Shown here piece after piece: positions 23,543 to 24,881 of a DNA stretch of 64,000 nt. This stretch comes from Pseudomonadota bacterium (GTDB lineage Bacteria; Pseudomonadota; Gammaproteobacteria; Burkholderiales; Rhodocyclaceae). The translations under genes were made by a program, and so were the position numbers. The DNA is taken from NCBI GenBank assembly GCA_018241725.1, contig JAFEDI010000138.1:174706-238705 (forward strand). Direction: 5' to 3'. Numbering within the stretch: the stretch's first letter is position 1; the number at the start of each line of letters is the position of its first letter. The notes below the pieces were generated by a model. It was not told the origin of the DNA, did no database searches, and worked only from the letters and a program-made list of their open reading frames with translations.

Positions 23543-24220
23543 GCCCGGCTTGATCATGAAAAACACGGCGGCACTTGGGCTCGCGACCACCGCGGAGGTA
23601 CTCGCGACCCTCCCCGGGGTACTCGCGAGCCCCTCCGAGGAGCTCGCCCTCCCCGCCGGGATGGTCCGTCCTGTATCGGAAGCTCTCGCTTGGGTGTGGG
23701 GGATAGGGCGGGTCTGTCTCCGGGCTCCTCGGGACCCTCTCCCGGACAGTTGGCCCCTATCCCGGTGGGCCTCGCAAGCAGCTTTCGGATAGGGTGGGAG
23801 TATCGGCGGGACAGGGGCGGTCTGTCCCGGAGGTACTCGCGAGGGATTCGCGGATAGGGCAGGACACTCGCCGGGCTCCTCGCGAGGACCTTCCGGATAG
23901 TCGGGACGGCTTCGGCAGGGGTCGGATCGGCTTCCGGGGATGTCTGACGGGACGGAGTGCCTGGGCGGAGCGGCCCGGCGAAGGGCGAGCGGACGTCGCG
24001 GGGGCGCGGCAGAGTGTCGGAGTGCCGCCGGACGGCTGCGGAGAGCGAGCCGGCCGGCAGGCCGAGGGGGCAGGCTTCCAGCTTGGGCCGCCCGCGCCGA
24101 AGCCGCTCAGACCTGCCTTATTCACGGCCGAACATGCAGCCCAACGACGCGCTTGGCTGCGAAGAAGGGCCCGCGAATCGCCCTCGCCCAACACGTCCAC
24201 GCAGAGACCCATCGAAGACC
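23543..24220. other. Gene-free GC-rich tract
   Basis: About 680 bp with open frames on every strand only because GC is high; none has a ribosome-binding site together with protein-like composition. The first part (23585-23905) is built of degenerate repeat modules described separately; the rest (23905-24220) is purine-rich and without recognised elements. Confidence 0.6.
23585..23905. repeat. Degenerate interspersed repeat tract (GGTACTCGCGAG / GGATAGGG modules)
   Basis: The motif GGAGGTACTCGCGA occurs at 23594-23607 and 23829-23843, with GGGGTACTCGCGAG at 23616-23629 and CTCCTCGCGAGG near 23877. A second motif GGATAGGG occurs at 23701, 23787 and 23852, with GGATAG at 23895, and inverted as CCTATCCCGG near 23756. 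Spacing is irregular, and TCGCGA is itself palindromic. No spacer regularity suggests CRISPR. Confidence 0.6.
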
Positions 24221-24250
24221 TTGACCCCCGCCTCCGCCCGAGCCGATACT
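24221..24250 (+). promoter_or_regulatory. Promoter candidate for the structured RNA locus
   Basis: TTGACC (24221-24226), 18 bp, GATACT (24245-24250): a sigma-70-like pair with five and four matches to consensus. The start point would be near 24257, just before a GTCACC/GGTGAC hairpin (24252-24282) and the structured RNA. Confidence 0.4.
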
Positions 24251-24251
24251 G

Positions 24252-24444
24252 CACCCGTCACCCAAACAACGGTGACCGGGTGTGGAAACCCGGAACGACA
24301 TAGGCCGATACGATCAGGCCGCGCCATGCGCGGTCTTCTCATTTCGGCGCATGGCTACGCCTGTTCAATGGCGGTCCGTGCGGGGCAGCCGCGAGGCTGG
24401 CCGGTTCCTATGTCCCGGTATTTCCACCCCCGCACGGTTCCGCC
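24252..24444 (+). ncRNA. Structured RNA candidate resembling phage C4 antisense RNA
   Basis: Three stable elements in 190 bases. (1) CACCCGTCACC (24252-24262) pairs with GGTGACCGGGTG (24271-24282) with one bulge. (2) GCCATGCGC (24323-24331) pairs with GCGCATGGC (24347-24355). (3) A closing stem GGCGG-T-CCGTGCGGGG (24370-24385) pairs with CCCCGCACGG-TT-CCGCC (24428-24444), enclosing hairpin CAGCC-GCGA-GGCTG (24386-24399) and a CCGG/CCGG pairing (24401-24404, 24415-24418). The arrangement, and phrases such as GGTGACCGGGTGTGGAAACC and ACGACATAGGC, are what I remember of C4-type antisense RNAs of P1/P4-like phages and of the ash/icd-like loci that overlap them. Identity is by recall, not by search. 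Confidence 0.5.
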
Positions 24445-24501
24445 GCCCACCGTGGAAAGTGGGTCGCGGAGATGCAGACCGCTGACATAGGAGCCACCAC
24501 C

Positions 24502-24618
24502 ATGCACCACTTCACACCGGACCGAGTTGTCCGGGCCACGTCTCATTGCGCCTGCCAACCTGCCATTGCCGTCCTGGCAGCACCTCGTCCGGCCATCCGC
24601 GGAAGGAGTGCCGCATGA
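24502..24618 (+). CDS. 38-residue leader ORF, translationally coupled
   Basis: An ATG at 24502 preceded at 8 bp by AGGAG (24489-24493) opens a 38-codon frame (MHHFTPDRVVRATSHCACQP...) whose TGA overlaps the ATG of the next small gene as ATGA. The good ribosome-binding site and the overlap argue for translation. Composition is unremarkable and no homologue is recognised. It may exist only to couple translation of the following gene downstream of the structured RNA. Confidence 0.45.
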   Translation: MHHFTPDRVVRATSHCACQPAIAVLAAPRPAIRGRSAA

Positions 24619-24881
24619 GCACCCCGATGCGTTTTCCCGCCACAACCGATCCGCTCTATCTGCTCAACGACGATGTCGGCGCCATGGCCCTCATCGACCA
24701 GCTCTCCGCCCGGCAGATGCAGCTCCAGGCGCTGCTTGCCCGAACCTTCGGTGACTCGGGCGACGCCTTCCGCCGCCTGAATCCCACCCTGCAGGACAAT
24801 TACCTGTGGGCCTGCTTCATGATCGCCGAGGAGATGCGGGGGCTGTCCGAGGCGCTACGGGCACGGAGGCACGGGGCATAG
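24615..24881 (+). CDS. Small helical protein downstream of the C4-like RNA
   Basis: An 88-residue acidic protein (MSTPMRFPATTDPLYLLNDD...). It begins with a proline-containing TTDPLYLLNDDVGAMALIDQL segment followed by helices and ends in DNYLWACFMIAEEMRGLSEAL. The layout recalls small DUF3077/DUF6124-like proteins (TxPLF...A...L, then an IAxEMRxL helix) that are found beside similar RNA loci in Pseudomonas, but similarity is weak. AAGGAG at 24603-24608 precedes the ATG at 24615. It is convergent with the large hybrid kinase gene (16-bp gap). Function unknown. Confidence 0.6.
   Translation: MSTPMRFPATTDPLYLLNDDVGAMALIDQLSARQMQLQALLARTFGDSGDAFRRLNPTLQDNYLWACFMIAEEMRGLSEALRARRHGA

What the first reader, a model, noticed from the sequence alone, without database searches (positions are those of the whole stretch)
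24221..24881. C4-antisense-RNA-like structured RNA locus on a non-prophage chromosome segment
Seen: a promoter-like pair, two stable hairpins and a 15-bp closing stem enclosing two smaller pairings (24252-24444), followed by a coupled leader ORF and an 88-residue gene. Known: C4 antisense RNAs of P1/P4-type phages silence antirepressor genes, and icd/ash-like ORFs overlap such loci. Inferred: a phage-derived regulatory RNA has been domesticated to control a small chromosomal protein. No integrase, capsid or other phage gene is within 20 kb.
Basis: partly seen in the sequence, partly recalled or inferred. Interest (0 to 1): 0.72.

Follow-up and report, generated by a model that had tools for sequence, protein, structure and literature searches.

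The report
Private antisense locks on small-protein genes
A phage-type silencing RNA sits in front of a small chromosomal gene, and the same bacterium carries about fifteen such locked genes, each with its own matching RNA address, so the lock type is known but the family of individually addressed chromosomal locks is unusual.

Summary
Window 24364-24450 matches Rfam C4 antisense RNA at 69.5 bits (cut-off 45). Upstream lie a promoter-like pair, an isrK/SeqA-like pair of hairpins and a terminator-like hairpin; downstream a coupled 38-aa leader ORF and an 88-aa gene. No integrase or AlpA gene was found on the contig.

The window is one of 18 C4 loci in this Zoogloea-group genome. Fifteen of the 18 carry a paralogue of the 88-aa protein, and all 15 full-length paralogues found sit behind a C4. 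Two short C4 words (a, b) match targets on both sides, one covering the leader's Shine-Dalgarno. The words differ between loci and the targets change with them: 0 of 10,000 permutations reach the observed pairing in each of three genomes. The protein is under purifying selection (dN/dS 0.06-0.29, 17 pairs).

Best reading: a satellite-phage immunity RNA reduced to a 0.65-kb unit and multiplied into privately addressed RNA locks on a small helical protein. The RNA logic is supported by sequence; transcription, silencing and the protein's function are untested. Multi-copy C4-like RNAs are known in Acinetobacter (PMC5320573), targets left open.

The parts
24221..24250 (+). promoter-like -35/-10 pair (TTGACC-18-GATACT)
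   Evidence: Sequence; conserved position in 36 of 41 loci
24257..24304 (+). upstream target segment (isrK / P4 SeqA-like): two hairpins, b1 word GTGGAAA 24282-24288, a1 word GACATAGG 24297-24304
   Evidence: Sub-threshold isrK (40.6 bits, cut-off 50) and c4-a1b1 (29.9, cut-off 46.7) hits; complementarity
24312..24340 (+). terminator-like hairpin followed by a T-rich stretch
   Evidence: Fold; similar hairpins seen by eye upstream of C4 in other own loci
24364..24450 (+). C4 antisense RNA: loop a TTCCTATGTC 24405-24414; b word TTTCCAC 24421-24427
   Evidence: RF01695 69.5 bits; fold z -4.92
24452..24458 (+). b2 target word GTGGAAA
   Evidence: 7-nt complement of C4 b
24484..24492 (+). a2 target word GACATAGGA, overlapping the Shine-Dalgarno of the leader ORF
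   Evidence: 9-nt complement of C4 loop a
24502..24618 (+). 38-aa leader ORF, stop overlapping the next start (ATGA)
   Evidence: 30 of 35 leaders in related loci have the same 4-nt overlap
24615..24881 (+). 88-aa protein gene, predicted helical hairpin; one of 15 full-length paralogues in the genome

Best explanation
The locus is a self-contained RNA lock. One promoter makes a transcript that runs through an upstream decoy/attenuator segment (b1-a1, then a terminator-like hairpin), the C4 RNA, a leader ORF and the 88-aa gene. C4, probably cut out of the same transcript by RNase P as in phage P1, pairs by its a and b words with the downstream copy b2-a2. This covers the leader's Shine-Dalgarno and so, through translational coupling, shuts off the 88-aa protein. 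Pairing with the upstream copy should favour termination (P4 logic) or titrate C4 (IsrK logic). The unit derives from the immunity module of P4-like satellites/prophages and was reduced to about 0.65 kb, multiplied and spread over the chromosome. Each copy carries its own a/b address, so each is mainly controlled by itself. Shown here: structure, three-way complementarity, coupling layout, copy number, synteny, purifying selection. Inferred: transcription, processing, direction of regulation, origin. Unknown: what the protein does; my guess is a small regulatory or growth-modulating protein released when the C4 balance is broken.
For: C4 hit 69.5 bits. 18 C4 loci in the genome, all over cut-off. 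15 full-length paralogues, all behind a C4; 15 of 18 C4 loci have one. Own-genome cognate pairing: a-up 7.5 and a-down 7.9 nt against 4.3 and 4.5 non-cognate; b 7.0 against 4.7-4.8; at least 7 nt for a-up, a-down, b-up and b-down in 16, 16, 17 and 18 of 18 loci. Permutations 0 of 10,000 for each element and side in three genomes. Leader with 4-nt overlap in 30 of 41 loci; in 4 of 41 the main ORF itself starts on the target. The window unit lies next to the same kinase gene in two sister species, with a kept and b changed together with both targets. dN/dS 0.06-0.29 over 17 cross-genome pairs. Of the contigs with C4 loci only C128 and C51 carry an integrase; the only paralogue unit among these, C128b, is 60 kb from it. 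Same order isrK-terminator-C4-like RNA-orf45-anrP in Gifsy-1, with coupling tested by its authors (PMC4825925, section 21 and passages read).
Against: No expression data. The upstream segment is below the Rfam cut-offs for isrK and c4-a1b1. One paralogue locus lacks good a-pairing downstream (C29) and one upstream (C91). In two other multi-copy genomes, G438 and G530, only upstream pairing is clearly kept; downstream pairing is weak, so the translational step may not be universal. Between the own units the P2 hairpin, which is no target word, varies as much as the words do, so variability alone proves nothing. Several unit contigs end within 0.5-7 kb of the unit (for example C91, C140, C120, C47, C110), so phage genes beyond those ends cannot be excluded there. 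The protein has no match in Pfam, NCBIfam or PHROGs or the PDB by sequence, and no significant fold match.
Confidence: 0.78

Rival explanations
1. Type I toxin-antitoxin-like modules: C4 is a labile RNA antitoxin, the 88-aa protein (or leader) a toxin, and private addresses keep paralogous modules from silencing each other.
For: Antisense RNA with a private target per paralogue; purifying selection. Growth inhibitors are tied to C4-type loci elsewhere: AntQ, induced through the isrK locus (PMC4825925), and P1 icd (recalled).
Against: The protein is predicted to be a helical hairpin, unlike the short hydrophobic peptides usual for type I toxins (recalled). By layout C4 is made from the same transcript as its target, not from an opposing gene. 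No toxicity data.
Confidence: 0.25
2. Immunity bank: the chromosomal C4 RNAs act in trans on incoming satellites or phages that carry the same a/b words; the downstream gene is secondary.
For: 13 of the 32 C4 loci that the script did not class as units (own genome, genus and outgroups) share the a word with a chromosomal unit. Weiss et al. raised this idea for Acinetobacter (PMC5320573, passages read).
Against: The class of 32 is not clean: some of its members do carry a diverged or more distant paralogue (for example L017, L018, L036, G020:C65). Only 2 of the 32 share both words (G020:C71:265477 and L036). The cargo gene is conserved, which a pure RNA shield would not need.
Confidence: 0.15
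3. Remnants of decayed prophages or satellites with no present function.
For: Origin fits: in the relative G018 a C4 locus with a paralogue lies about 2.3 kb from three tRNA genes, and the C4 locus L010 of G021 is followed by an AlpA-family gene. Four fragments of the protein gene exist in the own genome.
Against: Purifying selection, conserved leader coupling, and words that change at three sites together.
Confidence: 0.05

Closest known systems
C4 antisense RNA of phages P1/P7 (RF01695)
   Same: Covariance-model match; three-stem fold; loop a and b complementary to a target over a ribosome-binding site of a leader ORF coupled to the next gene (P1 details recalled and via PMC5320573).
   Different: Chromosomal, about 15 paralogous units in one genome, target gene is not ant/icd by Pfam, extra copy of the target upstream as in P4.
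P4 satellite immunity: CI RNA with SeqA and SeqC
   Same: Target copies both upstream and downstream of the antisense RNA, order SeqA-CI-SeqC (as described in PMC4825925, section 21).
   Different: No satellite integrase or AlpA on the contig; the upstream segment is followed by an intrinsic-terminator-like hairpin; the cargo is one small protein.
Gifsy-1 isrK-STnc1160-orf45-anrP
   Same: isrK-like leader with terminator, readthrough into a C4-like RNA, short ORF coupled to the main gene (PMC4825925).
   Different: Prophage locus, cargo is an antirepressor; there the short IsrK activates translation in trans, untested here.
Acinetobacter baumannii Group 1 sRNAs (21 similar sRNAs in AB5075, all but three with C4-like folds)
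   Same: Multi-copy C4-like family in one genome with variable a loop; RNA-seq there suggests processing at the C4 5' end (PMC5320573, section 16 read).
   Different: Their target genes were not identified in the passages read; here nearly every unit carries its own target and a paralogous protein.

Membership tests
C4 antisense RNA (RF01695) | covariance-model score over the gathering cut-off | tested here: met
   69.5 bits against 45
C4 antisense RNA (RF01695) | a and b words complementary to a target at the ribosome-binding site of the next ORF | tested here: met
   a2 9 nt overlapping the SD, b2 7 nt
C4 antisense RNA (RF01695) | 5' processing by RNase P to a free RNA | not testable with these tools
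   A GGC stands at 24370-24372 near the stem start; PMC5320573 reports GGW, or GGC in two cases, at the processed ends. No RNA data here
C4 antisense RNA (RF01695) | located in a phage/satellite and silencing an antirepressor or icd-type gene | tested here: not met
   No integrase or AlpA on the contig; 88-aa protein without Pfam, NCBIfam or PHROG match
P4-type immunity (SeqA-CI-SeqC) | target copies on both sides of the antisense RNA | tested here: met
P4-type immunity (SeqA-CI-SeqC) | antisense RNA causes premature transcription termination | not testable with these tools
   Only a terminator-like hairpin is seen
isrK (RF01394) | score over the gathering cut-off | tested here: not met
   40.6 against 50 in the window; met upstream of C4 in 5 loci of relatives G004, G009, G018
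c4-a1b1 (RF03163) | score over the gathering cut-off | tested here: not met
   29.9 against 46.7
type I toxin-antitoxin | product toxic when not silenced | not testable with these tools
   Needs expression
type I toxin-antitoxin | short hydrophobic/membrane toxin | tested here: inconclusive
   Predicted helical hairpin, pLDDT 82; no membrane prediction was run

The most novel reading that the evidence does not exclude
Minimal, chromosomal, self-silencing units form a gene family in which each member carries a private two-word RNA address. The addresses work as heteroimmunity groups, so that units with different addresses can coexist while a newcomer with a resident's address stays silent. Similar multiplications occurred in several other proteobacterial lineages with different small proteins.
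Probability: 0.3. Interest if true: 0.82.

Novelty: new variant of a known kind. Interest (0 to 1): 0.62.

Why it matters
C4 RNAs are textbook phage immunity switches. Here one genome holds about 15 of them as chromosomal locks, each with an address readable at three places and a conserved protein behind it. That gives a multi-copy C4 family a visible set of targets, which were not identified in the Acinetobacter passages read here. It offers a natural set of apparently orthogonal antisense pairs for engineering, and makes it testable how an antisense word can change while its two targets change with it.

Tried and rejected
Uniqueness of the (a,b) pair within a genome: no duplicates among 18, 15 and 16 parsed loci, but shuffling b among loci gives no duplicates with P 0.69, 0.59 and 0.60, so uniqueness alone is not evidence of selection. 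One of the 17 G020 C4 loci could not be parsed and is not in these counts.

Faster change of the words than of the rest: in G425 the b word differs more between loci than the rest of C4 (mean 0.325 against 0.084 per site), but between the 15 own units words a and b (0.36, 0.385) differ no more than the P2 stem (0.362) and less than the P2 loop (0.674). I therefore rest the case on matching at three sites, not on rate. In the own C4 stems, 6 of 26 pairs show changes on both sides, with 16 non-standard cells.

Phage collections: the 88-aa family gave no confirmed relative in viral contigs, and the window protein no tblastn match in the phage or plasmid collections.

Common ancestry with the 92-aa paralogues behind C4 in genome G530: profile comparison not convincing (hhalign probability 6.5).

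Fold matches: none at E <= 0.001 in PDB or BFVD; a hit to PA2703 (3stq) at E 2.5 was discarded as a generic helical hairpin.

Clean insertion site with target duplication: not found. At the orthologue of own locus C6, genomes G016 and G021 lack the unit, but the edges are not sharp. At the window site, G021 holds a different gene (DUF4382-like by eye, not searched).

Alignment A1 held one wrong-frame row (a wrong reference); it was replaced by A2 and not used. Loci on the minus strand were first read unoriented; corrected. The regular expression that flagged units counts 41 loci and misses some that the profile finds. The class-wide scan scored only 11 candidates per genome, so its copy numbers are lower bounds. 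Of 49 viral model matches I gave 38 to the word comparison, leaving out repeats and second loci of one contig.

Full report
What is there. The described anatomy is present at the stated place. cmscan gives RF01695 (C4) at 24364-24450, + strand, 69.5 bits against a gathering score of 45, the only Rfam gathering hit in the 64-kb window. Weak hits to isrK (40.6 bits, cut-off 50) and c4-a1b1 (29.9, cut-off 46.7) cover the two upstream hairpins. The C4 segment folds far better than shuffles (z -4.92) and the upstream segment with its terminator-like hairpin moderately better (z -2.50); the downstream target region does not (z -0.22). A 38-aa leader ORF (24502-24618) overlaps the 88-aa gene (24615-24881) by ATGA.

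The words. C4 loop a (TTCCTATGTC) is complementary to GACATAGG upstream (24297-24304) and GACATAGGA downstream (24484-24492, overlapping the leader's Shine-Dalgarno); the b word (TTTCCAC) is complementary to GTGGAAA at 24282-24288 and 24452-24458 (coordinates read). This is the P4 order SeqA-CI-SeqC and the order of Salmonella isrK-STnc1160-orf45-anrP (PMC4825925, section 21 and passages read).

Not alone. The genome holds 18 C4 loci, all over the cut-off. A profile of the 88-aa protein finds 19 places: 15 full-length and 4 fragments; all 15 full-length copies sit directly behind a C4 and 15 of 18 C4 loci have one. The other three are C128a, C51 and C127; the first two have an integrase on the contig, at about 6 and 11 kb, and a tRNA at about 0.3 and 4 kb. 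On the contigs of the 15 units the only integrase is on C128, about 60 kb from its unit; AlpA is on none of them. Several of these contigs end close to the unit, so this is an absence on the assembled stretch. In the genus, 8 of 23 genomes have a match, three of them many (G000 19, G020 20, G016 16, fragments included; G008 a fragment only); in a family sample 5 of 121 do, G000, G009 and G020 among them.

Private addresses. Longest exact complement, own 18 loci, cognate against non-cognate means: a-up 7.5/4.31, a-down 7.89/4.45, b-up 7.0/4.75, b-down 7.0/4.74; cognate 7 nt or more in 16, 16, 17 and 18 of 18; non-cognate 7 nt or more in 10, 11, 28 and 36 of 306. So cross-pairing is uncommon for a, and commoner for b alone. 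Permuting loci never reached the observed mean in 10,000 trials for either word on either side in G000 (15 units), G016 (12) and G020 (13). Misses: C128a (poor on three of four), C91 (a-up 5), C29 (a-down 4). No two parsed loci of a genome share both words, but chance would give that often.

Turnover. Of 17 cross-genome pairs compared, 15 have matching flanks (the pairs C140-G016 and C9-G016:C108 do not). Word a is the same in 17 of 17; word b differs in 9 of 17, and each new word again has 7-nt complements on both sides. The window itself is such a case: its orthologues G016:C11 and G020:C49 have b TCTCACC instead of TTTCCAC. Both flanks of the window unit match in G016; in G020 the kinase side adjoins directly and the upstream gene is about 12 kb away on the same contig. 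The neighbours C4a and C4c, 2 kb apart, encode nearly identical proteins (dS 0.03) yet differ in both words. At the C6 site the unit is present in G000 and G020 and absent in G016 and G021, where 45 and 63 bp lie between the matched stretches instead of about 670-690 bp; the match on the right begins inside the last bases of the gene at 73% identity, so the edge is not sharp.

The protein. dN/dS is 0.06-0.29 over the 17 cross-genome pairs. AlphaFold2 on 29 sequences gives a helical hairpin (helices 23-42, 46-53, 57-86; pLDDT 82). L082, 39% identical, was left out of that alignment because its matched stretch holds a stop; its ORF of 93 aa lies beside a 350-aa ORF that looks like an integrase by eye. 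No family, PDB or significant fold match. In relatives G018 and G004 some copies lie 0.7-1.1 kb behind C4 with other ORFs between, and isrK reaches its cut-off upstream of C4 there. I take the satellite/prophage operon as the source; this is inference.

Elsewhere. A class sample finds C4 in 24 of 369 genomes, G000 included. Three multi-copy genomes were examined. G425: 6 loci, six different b words, five of six with the same a word, cognate on both sides (permutations reaching the observed value for b: 10 and 12 of 10,000; for the shared a: 1609 and 1669). G438: 10 loci, upstream pairing strong (0 of 10,000), downstream not distinguishable (1076 and 495). G530: 6 loci, 92-aa paralogues seen behind 5, upstream pairing supported (148 and 14), downstream weak (522 and 326). 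So upstream pairing is the commoner feature, which favours a role in termination or autoregulation, with the translational block added in Zoogloea and G425.

Literature. Weiss et al. 2016 (PMC5320573; passages and section 16 read) report 21 similar sRNAs in A. baumannii AB5075, all but three with C4-like folds, with variable a loops, RNA-seq signs of processing, and targets left open. Weinberg et al. 2010 (PMC2864571; two passages seen) list C4 and c4-a1b1. Searches for C4 antisense RNA, RF01695, c4-a1b1, Zoogloea with prophage and antisense RNA, and four term combinations listed no description that I recognised of chromosomal C4 units with paralogous targets; only listings were seen for most papers, and the library lacks most subscription papers.

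Judgement. The RNA lock reading is well supported by sequence and comparison but has no experimental support here. Membership in the C4 family is met by model and pairing. The phage context and antirepressor target are not met, so this is a variant use of a known RNA.

Noticed in passing
window 23576-24100: GC-rich dispersed intergenic repeat of about 400-500 bp just upstream of the unit; 7 further longer copies in the own genome at 75-86% identity and more in relatives.
   Followed up: partly
L049 (own C6 locus), query stretches 1395-1700 and 2400-2706: The C6 unit is flanked by another dispersed repeat; the first stretch is present in dozens of copies in relative G012, often as close inverted pairs.
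   Followed up: no
L488:1201-2593 (G425:C9:1700-3092): Four C4 loci in a row in a 1.5-Mb genome, closely similar apart from the b word and its two targets.
   Followed up: partly
L479, L481, L484, L485, L487 (G438): C4-like RNAs with enlarged a loops (up to about 30 nt), complements upstream and none clear downstream.
   Followed up: partly
L193:7565-7631: Betaproteobacteria toxic small RNA (RF02278, 66.5 bits) near a diverged paralogue of the 88-aa protein in G016 that has no C4 hit over cut-off.
   Followed up: no
L235:3645-3714: int-alpA RNA (RF02996, 62.7 bits) in G008 beside a fragment of the 88-aa protein family.
   Followed up: no
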